Assembly: GCA_031127085.1 (NCBI GenBank)
Contig: JARIEY010000012.1
Location: forward strand, 1-34,929
Length of the DNA: 34,929 nt
Source of the DNA: Gemmatimonadota bacterium
Lineage (GTDB): Bacteria > Gemmatimonadota > Gemmatimonadetes > Gemmatimonadales > Gemmatimonadaceae
Direction: 5' to 3'
The notes under the pieces were generated by a model. The model was not told the origin of the DNA and searched no databases. It worked only from the letters and a program-made list of their open reading frames with translations. The translations under genes were made by a program, and so were the position numbers. Positions 19,255 through 23,664 of the stretch are shown piece by piece. How positions within the stretch are numbered: the stretch's first letter is position 1; every line of letters starts with the position of its first letter.

Positions 19255-19313
19255 GGATTGGGAATTCGGATTGGGATTTAGGATTGCGATTTGGGATTGC
19301 GATTTGCGATTGA
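19249..19313 (+). repeat. 65-bp element, copy 1 (five 13-bp units)
   Basis: Five consecutive 13-mers, all starting with GA: GATTGAGGATTGG, GAATTCGGATTGG, GATTTAGGATTGC, GATTTGGGATTGC and GATTTGCGATTGA. Units have the form GAnnnnnGATTnn. The element starts six bases before the end of the threonine aldolase gene and contains its stop codon. The first unit is identical to the first unit of the copies at 20698 and 21145. It runs straight into a 16-bp minisatellite. Confidence 0.88.
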
Positions 19314-19314
19314 C

Positions 19315-19490
19315 GGCGGGTGCGGGGCGTGCTGGGTGCGGGGTGCGCTGGGTGCGGGGTGCGCTGGGTGCGGGGCCGGCTGGCCGCGGGGTCGGCTGGC
19401 CGCGGGGTCGGCTGGCCGCGGGGTCGGCTGGCCGCGGGGTCGGCTGGCCGCGGGGTCGGCTGGCCGCGGGGTCGGCTGGCCGCGGGGCGC
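19315..19490. repeat. 16-bp minisatellite, 11 units
   Basis: Eleven head-to-tail 16-bp units. The first (19315) is degenerate. Two are GCTGGGTGCGGGGTGC (19331, 19347), the third of this type (19363) is a junction form, then six identical GCTGGCCGCGGGGTCG copies start at 19379, 19395, 19411, 19427, 19443 and 19459, and a last variant starts at 19475. Because 16 is not a multiple of 3, every frame is open, giving spurious Gly/Arg/Ala/Trp open frames on both strands. Near-identity of the central units suggests recent expansion by slippage. Confidence 0.95.
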
Positions 19491-20870: not shown

Positions 20871-20971
20871 GTGCTTCAGGCCCCGGTGGGCGCGGGCCCG
20901 CCAACTCCGCCAGGGCCGAAAGGCAGCAACGGTACGTGGTGTTCCACGTCGCATCGTCAGGCCTGAAGCAC
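20871..20971 (+). ncRNA. ffs: signal recognition particle RNA, small bacterial (4.5S) type
   Basis: The ends GTGCTTCAGGC (20871-20881) and GCCTGAAGCAC (20961-20971) pair perfectly as an 11-bp terminal stem, giving an RNA of about 101 nt. The interior holds the conserved domain IV: CCGCCAGGGCCGAAAGGCAG followed by CAACGG (about 20907-20932), that is, the GCC-GAAA-GGC tetraloop hairpin and the asymmetric AGCA loop bound by Ffh. There is no Alu domain, as expected for the short form. The RNA scaffolds co-translational targeting of membrane proteins. It is flanked by a promoter, a terminator and two inverted pairs of 65-bp repeats. Confidence 0.93.
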
Positions 20972-21145: not shown

Positions 21146-22009
21146 GTCTTGTGACCAGCCGTTCCCAACGCGGAATGCCTCCTCAATGGCGGACCGATCG
21201 CGTCGCGCCACGGCACCCCGCAGCGCGCCGAGTTGCGCCAGGCAGGTCTCGAGCGCATCAAGCACCGGGACGGCGTTGTCCTCCAGAATGGCGGCCCACA
21301 TCGTCACCGACGAGGCGGCCATTCGGGTCATGTCGCGGCCGCCGCCGCCGAGCCGTTTGCGGGGTATCCCCCGCGACGCAAGCGTCCCGGCCAGCGCGAG
21401 CGAGAGCAGCTGCGGCAGGTGGCTCGCGAAAGCCATTTCGGCATCGTGGCTGGTGGCGTCTCGCTCTGCTGGCACCGCACCGATGGCGCGCCACAGGGCG
21501 CGCGCGCGTTTCCAGGCGTCTGGCGTTGTCTCCGGCGATCGGCAGAGATCGACGCGAGCCCCATCGAAAAGGCCCCTCCGCGACGCGTGCCATCCGGCGC
21601 GGTGGTCGCCCGCCATGGGATGACTCCCCACGAAGACCGGTGAGAGCCCGAGCGCGGCCGCCCTGCTCTGAATGCTCCGCTTGGTGCTTCCCACGTCGGT
21701 GACCAGCGCGGCCGCGTTCAGGTGCGGCGCCGCCCGCTCGAGCAGCGACGCGGCGGCGTCGACCGGCACGGCGAGCACCACCGTTCGTGCCTCCTCGAGT
21801 GCGCGGAGACCGCCATCGAACACCCGCGCAATAACGCCGGCGCGATATGCGTCGCGCGTGGCCGATTCGTCAGCGTCGAAGCCCCAGACCTCAAGCCCGC
21901 GGGCCGCGAGTTCCCGAGCGAGCGACCCGCCGATGAGCCCCAGTCCCAAAATGGCGACCGGCCCTTCGATCCCGGTTGCCCGACGAGGGCGCGTACGCGT
22001 GGCACTCAT
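21140..22009 (-). CDS. tyrA: prephenate dehydrogenase
   Basis: This NAD(P)-dependent enzyme oxidatively decarboxylates prephenate to 4-hydroxyphenylpyruvate, the tyrosine precursor. The 289-residue protein has an N-terminal Rossmann motif (VAILGLGLIGGSLARELAARG), VVLAVPVDAAASLL, VTDVGSTKRSI, and FVGSHPMAGDHRAGW with the catalytic His, followed by the helical dimerisation domain (MAFASHLPQLLSLALAGTL). There is no fused mutase or ACT domain; the mutase is the separate gene just upstream. ATG 22009 overlaps the mutase stop as ATGA; an in-frame ATG at 22039 lies inside the mutase gene. It is the last gene of the aromatic operon and should be under the tyrosine leader. Confidence 0.9.
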   Translation of the reverse strand: MSATRTRPRRATGIEGPVAILGLGLIGGSLARELAARGLEVWGFDADESATRDAYRAGVIARVFDGGLRALEEARTVVLAVPVDAAASLLERAAPHLNAAALVTDVGSTKRSIQSRAAALGLSPVFVGSHPMAGDHRAGWHASRRGLFDGARVDLCRSPETTPDAWKRARALWRAIGAVPAERDATSHDAEMAFASHLPQLLSLALAGTLASRGIPRKRLGGGGRDMTRMAASSVTMWAAILEDNAVPVLDALETCLAQLGALRGAVARRDRSAIEEAFRVGNGWSQDD

Positions 22010-22299
22010 TGCCCGTCGTCCTGCTGGGCGCGCCGGCACATGGCGACGACCGGCCAGAAAATGTCGCGCACGGCTTCCTCCGGGAGGTGGGCGCGGCGCG
22101 CCTGACGGGCGGCGGCGGCCACCACCTGCGCTTCACGCCAGGTGTCAAGCGTCGCCAGGCCCGCCGCGCGCTTTTCCACGCCAATGCGACGTGCCAGTGC
22201 CACCCGGCGAGCCAGCAGGTTCACCAACTCGGTGTCGAGCGCGCTGAGTTCGTCGCGCAGCGCGGTCAGCGACGGCGTGGTCTTTGCCGCGGGCGTCAT
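22006..22299 (-). CDS. chorismate mutase, AroQ class, monofunctional
   Basis: The 97-residue protein is an all-helical AroQ-type mutase converting chorismate to prephenate. Helix 1 reads LRDELSALDTELVNLLARRVALARRIGVEKRAAG, with the usual D-x-x-L-x-x-L-x-x-R pattern and the catalytic Arg and Lys positions. The rest (DTWREAQVVAAAARQA, LPEEAVRDIFWPVVAMCR) supplies the other two helices. It has no secretion signal or fused dehydratase. Its ATG (22299-22297) shares one base with the DAHP synthase stop, and its stop overlaps the tyrA start. In some bacteria a small mutase also associates with and regulates DAHP synthase, which the adjacency would allow. Confidence 0.88.
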   Translation of the reverse strand: MTPAAKTTPSLTALRDELSALDTELVNLLARRVALARRIGVEKRAAGLATLDTWREAQVVAAAARQARRAHLPEEAVRDIFWPVVAMCRRAQQDDGQ

Positions 22300-23351
22300 C
22301 AGGCCACCCGCGTGGCGCGCGTGTCGGGCCCGAGCGTGCGGCCACTGGCGGTTGCGAAGGGGGCGAGGGCACTCATCATGGCGTCGAACGCCTCGAGCGT
22401 GAGCGACTGGTCGCCGTCCGACATCGCCTCGCCGGGGCGAGGATGCACCTCGACAATCAGCCCGTCCGCGCCGGCGGCGATGGCCGCGAACGCCAGCGGT
22501 GCCACGAGGTCGGCGCGCCCCGCGGCGTGGCTGGGATCAACGATCACCGGCAGGTGGGTCTCGCGCTTCAGGACGGGAATGGCGGCCACATCGAGCGTGT
22601 TGCGCGTTGCGGTTTCGTAGGTGCGGATGCCCCGCTCGCACAGCACCACCATCTCGTTCCCGCGGGCCATGATGTGTTCGGCGGCCAACAGCAGTTCGGT
22701 GATGGTGGCCGAGAGCCCTCGCTTGAGCAGCACGGGACGGCGCACGCGGCCGACTTCGGCGAGCAAGGCGTAGTTCTGCATATTGCGCGCACCGATCTGC
22801 AGCATATCGGCGTGCTCGGCCACCAGATCGACATGGCGCGGGTCCATGACCTCGGTGACCACGGGGAGTCCCGTGGCGGCGCGTGCGTCGGCCAGGAGCG
22901 CCAAGCCCTCCACGCCGAGTCCCTGAAATGCCCACGGCGATGTGCGCGGCTTGAACGCGCCGCCCCGCAGCATCGTCGCGCCGTGCTCGCGGACGCCGCG
23001 CGCGGTCTCGAGCAACATGGCCGCATTCTCCACCGAGCAGGGACCCGCGGCGACCACGATGCGCCGTCCGCCAAGGACCGTCCCCGCGGCGTCGCCCAGC
23101 GGCACCGGCGTGGGAGCAGCGCGGAACTCGCGCGACGCGAGCCGGTACGGTGTGCGCACGGGGACGACCGAGGCGACGCCCTGCCAGCGCCGCACGGCGC
23201 CGGCGTCGAGCGCCGAGGTGTCGCCGATGCACCCCACCACCACGCGGTCGGTGCCGCGCGAGACGTGCGTGCGCACGCCGTGTGCTTCGAGGTGTTCGCG
23301 CAGCGCGTCGAGCGTAGGCTGGGGAATGCCGGCTTCGGTGATGATGATCAC
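22299..23351 (-). CDS. aroF: 3-deoxy-7-phosphoheptulonate (DAHP) synthase, type I-beta with regulatory domain
   Basis: This enzyme condenses phosphoenolpyruvate and erythrose 4-phosphate, the entry step to aromatic amino acids. In the 350-residue protein, residues 1-70 form a ferredoxin-like domain of the kind that gives tyrosine/phenylalanine feedback control in Thermotoga DAHP synthase. The catalytic barrel has [12 protein letters not shown] (101-112), [67 protein letters not shown] and DPSHAAGR. The start is GTG 23351, with GGAGG 4 nt upstream. A terminator with T tract ends only 14 nt before the start codon, preceded by a tyrosine-rich leader peptide. It is the first structural gene of the operon aroF, mutase, tyrA. 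Confidence 0.93.
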
Positions 23352-23365
23352 GGGGCCTCCGAAGG

Positions 23366-23399
23366 AAAAGAAAAAGGCCCGTGGACGTGTCCACGGGCC
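23366..23399 (-). terminator. attenuator terminator upstream of the DAHP synthase gene
   Basis: On the minus strand, GGCCCGTGGAC (23399-23389) and GTCCACGGGCC (23386-23376) form an 11-bp perfect stem with a 2-nt formal loop, followed at once by TTTTTCTTTT (23375-23366). It lies between a leader peptide gene and the aroF ribosome binding site, so it would stop transcription before the operon unless disrupted. Confidence 0.88.
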
Positions 23400-23456
23400 A
23401 GTTGTGTGCGATGGGTGTGTTCTGCTATGCGCGAACGCCTACCCCCGCGGCCCGTG
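23392..23456 (-). promoter_or_regulatory. candidate antiterminator pairing
   Basis: CACGGGCC at 23456-23449, inside the leader peptide gene and 13 nt after its last Tyr codon, is exactly complementary to GGCCCGTG at 23399-23392, the left arm of the terminator. The two pairings exclude each other. A ribosome stalled on the Tyr codons would leave 23456-23449 free to take the arm and let transcription continue. No folding calculation was done. Confidence 0.6.
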
Positions 23457-23502
23457 TGAGGCAGCGAACGTAGTAATACGAGTAGGCGCGGGCGCTGTGC
23501 AT
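23425..23502 (-). CDS. tyrosine-rich leader peptide of the aromatic operon
   Basis: A 25-codon open frame on the minus strand runs from ATG 23502 to TAG 23425. Its residues 6-14 read AYSYYYVRC: four tyrosine codons (TAC, TAT, TAC, TAC at 23484-23470) in five positions, with no Phe or Trp codon anywhere. The stop precedes the terminator by 25 nt. This is the architecture of an amino acid attenuator, and tyrosine is the expected end product of the operon that follows (DAHP synthase, chorismate mutase, prephenate dehydrogenase). No Shine-Dalgarno precedes the ATG. A promoter -10 element 8 nt upstream suggests the message may be leaderless. Translation of the frame is not shown, but the Tyr run, terminator and competing pairing together make chance unlikely. 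Confidence 0.8.
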
Positions 23503-23510
23503 GGTGGAGC

Positions 23511-23540
23511 ACGGTAACGGGGCGCAGGGCGAGACGTCAA
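23511..23540 (-). promoter_or_regulatory. likely promoter of the aromatic operon
   Basis: On the minus strand, TTGACG (23540-23535) is followed after 18 bp by TACCGT (23516-23511). Transcription would begin close to the leader ATG at 23502, consistent with a leaderless leader peptide. The -35 matches consensus at 5 of 6, the -10 at 3 of 6. Confidence 0.5.
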
Positions 23541-23553
23541 GGGCGGGGAGTGT

Positions 23554-23624
23554 GCCGTCTGCCATCGGCCGTCTGCCATCTGATGTCAGGTGACTGATGA
23601 CCGATGGCAGATGACCGACGGCAG
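23554..23624. repeat. 14-bp repeat pair in inverted orientation
   Basis: Two tandem units GCCGTCTGCCATCG and GCCGTCTGCCATCT (23554-23581) face two tandem units ATGACCGATGGCAG and ATGACCGACGGCAG (23597-23624). CTGCCATCGGCCGT in the left arm matches the reverse complement of a right unit at 12 of 14 positions. The arms are 15 bp apart and could form a cruciform or RNA hairpin in the gap between divergent aroF and dnaX. Confidence 0.75.
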
Positions 23625-23664
23625 ATGCCTACCGCCCACCCTCGACCCACTGCACTTTTAGAGC

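What the first reader, a model, noticed from the sequence alone, without database searches (positions are those of the whole stretch)
23366..23540. Tyrosine attenuator controlling a DAHP synthase-chorismate mutase-prephenate dehydrogenase operon
Seen: a 25-codon frame (23502-23425, minus) with four Tyr codons in five positions and no Phe or Trp codons; a perfect 11-bp hairpin with a T tract (23399-23366) ending 14 nt before the aroF start; and CACGGGCC (23456-23449), 13 nt after the last Tyr codon, exactly complementary to the left arm of that hairpin. Known: ribosome-mediated attenuators use such leader peptides, best described for Trp, Phe, His, Leu/Ile/Val and Thr operons. Tyrosine control of aromatic genes is usually by TyrR or T-boxes. 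Inference: low charged tRNA-Tyr stalls the ribosome, frees the antiterminator segment and turns on the operon. A tyrosine-specific leader in this kind of organism appears little described.
Basis: partly seen in the sequence, partly recalled or inferred. Interest (0 to 1): 0.88.

Follow-up and report, generated by a model that had tools for sequence, protein, structure and literature searches.

The report
Tyrosine-sensing attenuator before aroF operon
In front of the bacterium's tyrosine-making genes lies a short decoy gene rich in tyrosine codons followed by a transcription stop signal, a classic on/off switch that should turn the genes on when tyrosine runs short; it is conserved across the Gemmatimonadota, where the decoy's amino-acid mix partly follows the pathway it controls.

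Summary
A 25-codon ORF ([25 protein letters not shown], 23502-23425, minus), a terminator (23399-23366) and a segment complementary to its 5' arm (CACGGGCC, 23456-23449) precede a translationally coupled aroF-chorismate mutase-tyrA operon. Forty of 46 Gemmatimonadota aroF orthologues have the same arrangement. None of 27 lower-identity DAHP synthase loci, mostly second copies from the same phylum, does. Antiterminator and terminator arms co-vary: swapping partners between species destroys pairing (z -7.8 and -13.3). Aromatic codons are enriched only in the leader frame. Promoter boxes put the transcript start at the leader's own start codon, without a Shine-Dalgarno, so the leader is probably leaderless. 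T-boxes and TyrR were not found in 60 related genomes. Best explained as a classical ribosome-mediated attenuator. "Tyrosine-specific" holds for this species and a few others; across the phylum the leader reads aromatic residues generally (120 Tyr, 81 Phe, 25 Trp), with more Tyr before aroF-CM-tyrA than before aroF-pheA operons. Rfam has no family for it at threshold. The closest described case, the C. glutamicum aroR leader (Phe-Tyr-Phe), responds to Phe and not Tyr. A new member of a known kind; function is untested experimentally.

The parts
23535..23540 (-). -35 box TTGACG
   Evidence: TTGAC lies 35-40 nt before the leader start in 25/39 leaders against 0.4% at random positions
23511..23516 (-). 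-10 box TACCGT, 18-nt spacer, ending 8 nt before the leader ATG, so transcription should start at or next to the ATG
   Evidence: TANNNT ends 5-9 nt before the start in 25/39 leaders against 0.9% at random; coordinates
23425..23502 (-). leader [28 protein letters not shown], Tyr codons at 23484-23482, 23478-23476, 23475-23473, 23472-23470; no Shine-Dalgarno
   Evidence: conserved frame in 8/8 genus members that have the orthologue; in-frame aromatic enrichment
23482..23490 (-). segment 1, CGCGCCTAC; pairs with 23442-23436, covered by a ribosome stalled on the Tyr codons
   Evidence: MFE fold; swap test 5' part against post-segment-2 tail z -3.83, 2 in 10,000 permutations
23436..23442 (-). segment 1', GTAGGCG, 3' partner of segment 1
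23449..23456 (-). segment 2 (antiterminator 5' arm) CACGGGCC, inside the leader ORF
   Evidence: swap test segment 2:segment 3 z -7.8, 0/10,000
23390..23399 (-). segment 3 (shared arm) GGCCCGTGGA
23376..23385 (-). segment 4 (terminator 3' arm) TCCACGGGCC, loop CACG at 23389-23386
   Evidence: swap test segment 3:segment 4 z -13.3
23366..23375 (-). T tract TTTTTCTTTT of the intrinsic terminator
22299..23351 (-). aroF, DAHP synthase (GTG start, GGAGG at 23360-23356)
   Evidence: NCBIfam NF006421 463 bits over cut-off 335; Pfam DAHP_synth_1 and FXD domain
22006..22299 (-). chorismate mutase type II, start overlaps the aroF stop (TGATG)
   Evidence: Pfam CM_2 66.4 bits
21140..22009 (-). tyrA, prephenate dehydrogenase, start overlaps the CM stop (ATGA)
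   Evidence: Pfam PDH_N and PDH_C

Best explanation
A ribosome-mediated transcription attenuator. Transcription starts at the leader ATG and a ribosome begins the leader directly. Shown by sequence and comparison: the ORF, the aromatic-codon run, the co-varying segments 2, 3 and 4, the 1:1' pairing, the promoter and the operon. Inferred: when Tyr-tRNA is charged the ribosome runs through to the stop codon; segment 2 is then either held in the 1:1' structure after release or kept from segment 3 by the ribosome in the loop between them, so 3:4 forms and transcription ends before aroF. When Tyr-tRNA is uncharged the ribosome halts on codons 7-11, covers segment 1, leaves segment 2 free just beyond its leading edge, and 2:3 forms before segment 4 is made, so RNA polymerase reads into aroF-CM-tyrA.
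For: Conservation in 40/46 orthologue loci (39 by script, L030) and absence from 27/27 lower-identity DAHP synthase loci L044-L070. Swap tests between species: 2:3 z -7.8, 3:4 z -13.3, 1:1' z -3.8, unrelated control pairing z -0.2. Tyr 11.6% in the leader frame against 0.2 and 1.8% in the other frames, window excluded. Segment 2 begins 16 nt after the first base of the last Tyr codon (7-25 nt in the others, most often 10-17), as expected for a stalled ribosome. Simulated folds: in the window, stalled-ribosome masks give 10 bp between segment 3 and the leader before segment 4 exists, and a ribosome at the stop gives the 10-bp terminator. Tyr share of aromatic codons is higher before aroF-CM-tyrA operons than before aroF-pheA operons (49Y/18F/3W against 35Y/34F/11W; p 0.003, one per genus 0.007; also within the long-AroF clade, p 0.008). 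No T-box and no TyrR domain over cut-off in 60 genomes. hisG in 10/10 tested genomes of the phylum has a His-rich leader plus terminator, so attenuation appears to be in use here.
Against: No expression data. In the full-length fold, 3:4 still wins over 2:3 under the stalled mask for the window, so the switch must be kinetic. Segment 2 ends 20-22 nt before the stop codon, so a ribosome resting on the stop would not clearly cover it; the off state is less explicit than in E. coli trp. Without a ribosome many relatives are predicted to form 2:3, so the untranslated state may not be uniformly off. Close relatives carry Phe codons too, so strict Tyr specificity is not conserved.
Confidence: 0.87

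Rival explanations
1. The same attenuator, but a general aromatic-amino-acid sensor rather than a tyrosine one; Tyr-only content in this species is drift.
For: Phe in six of the seven other genus leaders, Trp in several genera; C. glutamicum aroR with Phe-Tyr-Phe responds to Phe and not Tyr (PMC11802643).
Against: The window leader has no Phe or Trp codon, so only Tyr starvation among the aromatics can halt the ribosome there. Tyr share follows the operon type, though with few independent contrasts.
Confidence: 0.1
2. Regulatory arrest peptide: the nascent chain itself senses free tyrosine or another ligand, as TnaC senses Trp.
For: The ORF is conserved and the AAGxGVRA end is nearly constant within the genus.
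Against: Across genera the peptide is not conserved apart from aromatic content, with Tyr, Phe and Trp interchanged; the constant C-terminal codons coincide with RNA segments 2 and 1', which explains their conservation.
Confidence: 0.02
3. Unregulated terminator or chance ORF; aroF expressed from another promoter.
For: No promoter mapping exists.
Against: Conservation, covariation and negligible false-positive rate.
Confidence: 0.01

Closest known systems
C. glutamicum aroR leader upstream of aroF (Neshat et al. 2014, as described in PMC11802643 and PMC4046766)
   Same: Aromatic leader peptide attenuator before a DAHP synthase gene. Leader peptides without a ribosome binding site also occur in that species (title of the ilvBNC reference).
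   Different: Phe-Tyr-Phe leader that responds to Phe limitation and not Tyr; different phylum; the window leader has Tyr only and heads an operon with CM and tyrA.
uORFC-13-1 motif upstream of aroF in Acholeplasma (PMC8632094)
   Same: Short ORF with aromatic (Phe) codons before a terminator ahead of a DAHP synthase gene.
   Different: Phe-coding U run, has a ribosome binding site, restricted to Acholeplasma and unassigned environmental sequences.
Trp leader, E. coli trp operon (Rfam RF00513)
   Same: Control codons, segments 1-4, and, from memory of the trp leader, similar spacing between control codon and segment 2.
   Different: Rfam model scores 18.1 bits against a threshold of 41; control residue is Tyr; segment 2 lies inside the ORF with the stop 20 nt beyond it; no Shine-Dalgarno.
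Proposed tRNA-Tyr attenuation of E. coli aroF-tyrA (Camakaris 1980, cited in PMC2659441; paper not available here)
   Same: Same pathway genes and same proposed signal.
   Different: There it was a proposal made from work without repression control; PMC8632094 calls attenuation of E. coli aroF hypothesised.

Membership tests
Ribosome-mediated transcription attenuator | Short leader ORF with a run of codons for the pathway's product | tested here: met
   4 Tyr in 5 codons before aroF-CM-tyrA; conserved aromatic runs in 40/46 orthologue loci
Ribosome-mediated transcription attenuator | Intrinsic terminator between leader and first structural gene | tested here: met
   10-bp stem plus T tract; arms co-vary, z -13.3
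Ribosome-mediated transcription attenuator | Mutually exclusive antiterminator using the terminator 5' arm | tested here: met
   Segment 2:3 co-varies, z -7.8
Ribosome-mediated transcription attenuator | Segment 1 pairing that is blocked by the stalled ribosome | tested here: met
   1:1' swap test z -3.8; weaker than the others
Ribosome-mediated transcription attenuator | Leader is translated and read-through rises when the cognate tRNA is uncharged | not testable with these tools
   needs ribosome profiling, term-seq or reporters
Rfam Trp_leader RF00513 | Score at or over the gathering threshold | tested here: not met
   18.1 bits against 41
T-box (RF00230) | T-box RNA present | tested here: not met
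   0 of 60 genomes including this one; control genomes ring
TyrR regulation | TyrR-type DNA-binding domain in the genome | tested here: not met
   TIGR04381 0 of 60 over cut-off, none in the genus; E. coli control rings; own assembly is 82% complete

The most novel reading that the evidence does not exclude
The first tyrosine-specific ribosome-mediated attenuator, belonging to a phylum-wide family of leaderless aromatic leaders whose Tyr/Phe/Trp mix is tuned by evolution to the branch enzymes in the operon, with similar leaders before DAHP synthase in many other phyla and no Rfam family.
Probability: 0.5. Interest if true: 0.65.

Novelty: new member of a known kind. Interest (0 to 1): 0.5.

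Why it matters
Tyrosine is described as controlled by TyrR or T-boxes; attenuation by tRNA-Tyr was proposed for E. coli aroF-tyrA decades ago but, as far as the papers read here show, remained a hypothesis. A natural Tyr leader, with dozens of relatives whose codon mix changes with the operon, lets one test how an attenuator's specificity evolves. It also suggests how a little-studied phylum regulates aromatic amino acids, and points to an RNA family missing from Rfam.

Tried and rejected
T-box and TyrR control: searched in 60 genomes, not found over cut-off. Known Rfam leader families: none over threshold in the window or in nine loci with such leaders. Leaders on trpE, pheA and leuA in 12 genomes: no convincing ones with my criteria, except the aroF-pheA operon of L171. 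Same scan with other amino-acid groups: small abundant residues (Ala/Gly/Ser) also reach four in eight codons often (25 loci) because of GC-rich coding, so that count alone is not decisive; the frame comparison, controls and swap tests are. The 1980 J. Bacteriol. paper could not be read. MAFFT covariation counting across genera was not used because spacers vary; the register-free swap test replaced it.

Full report
OBSERVATION. Every element reported is present at the given coordinates. The leader ORF is [25 protein letters not shown] (23502-23425, minus). Segment 2 CACGGGCC (23456-23449) is complementary to the first eight bases of the terminator's 5' arm GGCCCGTGGA (23399-23390). The stem is 10 bp with a CACG loop (not quite 11), followed by TTTTTCTTTT (23375-23366). 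aroF starts at GTG 23351 behind GGAGG. The stretch folds better than all 200 shuffles (z -3.64). None of 3000 shuffles gives a comparable Tyr run.

OPERON. The downstream genes are DAHP synthase (NF006421, 463 bits), chorismate mutase type II (CM_2) and prephenate dehydrogenase (PDH_N/PDH_C). Stop and start codons overlap at both junctions (TGATG, ATGA), so this is a dedicated tyrosine-branch operon.

COMPARISON. The window lies in a 3.15-Mb, 241-contig genome. The named records closest in aroF identity among those fetched are Gemmatimonadota, and one (L088, Gemmatimonadaceae bacterium P6-2) carries the same leader as L029 from the same-family genome G069, so the family is very probably Gemmatimonadaceae. 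Of 46 orthologous aroF loci examined, 39 gave an aromatic leader plus terminator by script, and L030 has one by inspection. The exceptions are one contig cut short (L023), one weak Phe-Ser-Tyr leader (L015) and four without. All eight genus members in which the orthologue was found have it. The 27 lower-identity DAHP synthase loci fetched (L044-L070), mostly second copies from the same genomes, have none, which is an internal control. Scanning 1.87 Mb of all these loci gave, apart from the aroF-associated leaders, essentially one chance hit.

STRUCTURE. Segments were exchanged between species, about one sequence per genus, letting register float. Own segment 2:3 pairing beats exchanged pairing by z -7.8 and own 3:4 by z -13.3, none of 10,000 permutations reaching either. 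The 5' part of the ORF against its 3' tail (1:1') gives z -3.8 (2 in 10,000), and an unrelated control pairing gives z -0.2. Terminator and antiterminator therefore change together, for example CACGGGCC, CCGCGGGCC, CCGGGAGCC and TCCCCAGGG types. Tyr makes up 11.6% of codons in the leader frame and 0.2 or 1.8% in the other two frames; Phe 8.1% against 3.4 and 2.2%, the window excluded. Segment 2 starts 16 nt from the first base of the last Tyr codon in the window, so a ribosome stalled there would leave it free.

START OF THE LEADER. TTGAC sits 35-40 nt before the leader start in 25 of 39 leaders (0.4% at random positions), and TANNNT ends 5-9 nt before it in 25 of 39 (0.9%). A Shine-Dalgarno-like motif is present in 1 of 39 leaders against 17 of 27 aroF genes. 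The leader is probably translated from the very 5' end of the transcript. That leaders without a ribosome binding site occur in other attenuators rests on the reference title.

SPECIFICITY. Across 39 leaders there are 120 Tyr, 81 Phe and 25 Trp; five leaders, the window's included, have Tyr alone. Six of the seven other genus leaders carry Phe as well. Tyr share is higher before aroF-CM-tyrA than before aroF-pheA operons (p 0.003; 0.007 with one per genus), and the contrast between tyrA operons and the rest holds inside the clade of long AroF proteins (p 0.008). These sequences share ancestry, so the number of independent switches is small. I read this as codon mix tuned to the operon, with moderate confidence.

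MECHANISM. Shown: anatomy, conservation, covariation. Inferred: stalling by uncharged tRNA-Tyr, kinetic capture of segment 3 by segment 2, read-through. Folding with the ribosome mask gives 10 bp between segment 3 and the leader before segment 4 is made, and the terminator when the ribosome is at the stop. Weak points: the full-length fold still prefers the terminator in the window, the stop codon lies about 20 nt past segment 2, and the no-ribosome fold differs among relatives.

ALTERNATIVES. No T-box in 60 genomes and no TyrR domain over cut-off. An arrest peptide is unlikely since residues other than aromatics are not kept across genera and the constant C-terminal codons overlap segments 2 and 1'.

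KNOWN OR NEW. Rfam gives nothing over threshold. The C. glutamicum aroR leader (Phe-Tyr-Phe) controls aroF and responds to Phe, not Tyr (PMC11802643; PMC4046766). An Acholeplasma aroF uORF motif with Phe codons is described, and attenuation of E. coli aroF is called hypothesised (PMC8632094; PMC2659441). A survey of Actinobacteria found no tyrosine attenuator (PMC1262725). No paper in the library joins Gemmatimonad- with leader peptide and attenuat-. Similar aromatic leaders precede DAHP synthase in Geomonas, Pelobacter, Fusobacteria, Calditrichota, Planctomicrobium, Clostridia and other MAGs, so the kind is broad. Verdict: a real, probably functional attenuator, a new member of a known kind with an unusual control residue.

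Noticed in passing
L187-L196; own genome L190, about 196 nt before the hisG match: His-rich leader peptides (for example MTLRRHHHVHRHGPTGRGSTRACG) followed by a terminator precede hisG in 10 of 10 Gemmatimonadota tested; Rfam does not call those in L188, L190 and L194 at gathering threshold.
   Followed up: partly
L075, L082, L091, L106, L108, L111, L117, L119, L126, L127, L131, L133, L144: Aromatic-run short ORFs upstream of DAHP synthase in many other phyla, often mixing Phe, Tyr and Trp; most were not checked for antiterminators.
   Followed up: partly
L092:2004, L098:2407, L123:1427: Aromatic leader plus terminator lying further upstream of aroF, probably heading longer aromatic operons.
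   Followed up: no
window 20875-20970 (+): Bacterial small SRP RNA, convergent with the aroF operon.
   Followed up: no
window 23545-23625: Imperfect repeats and inverted repeats of the type GCAGACGG/CCGTCGGTCATCTGCC just upstream of the promoter; similar GGTAGACGG-type repeats stand at the same place in genus relatives.
   Followed up: no
window about 19290-19490: GC-rich repeated DNA giving ORFs of repeated GRLAAGSAGRGVGWPR units on one strand and PRPADPAASRPRGQPT on the other.
   Followed up: no
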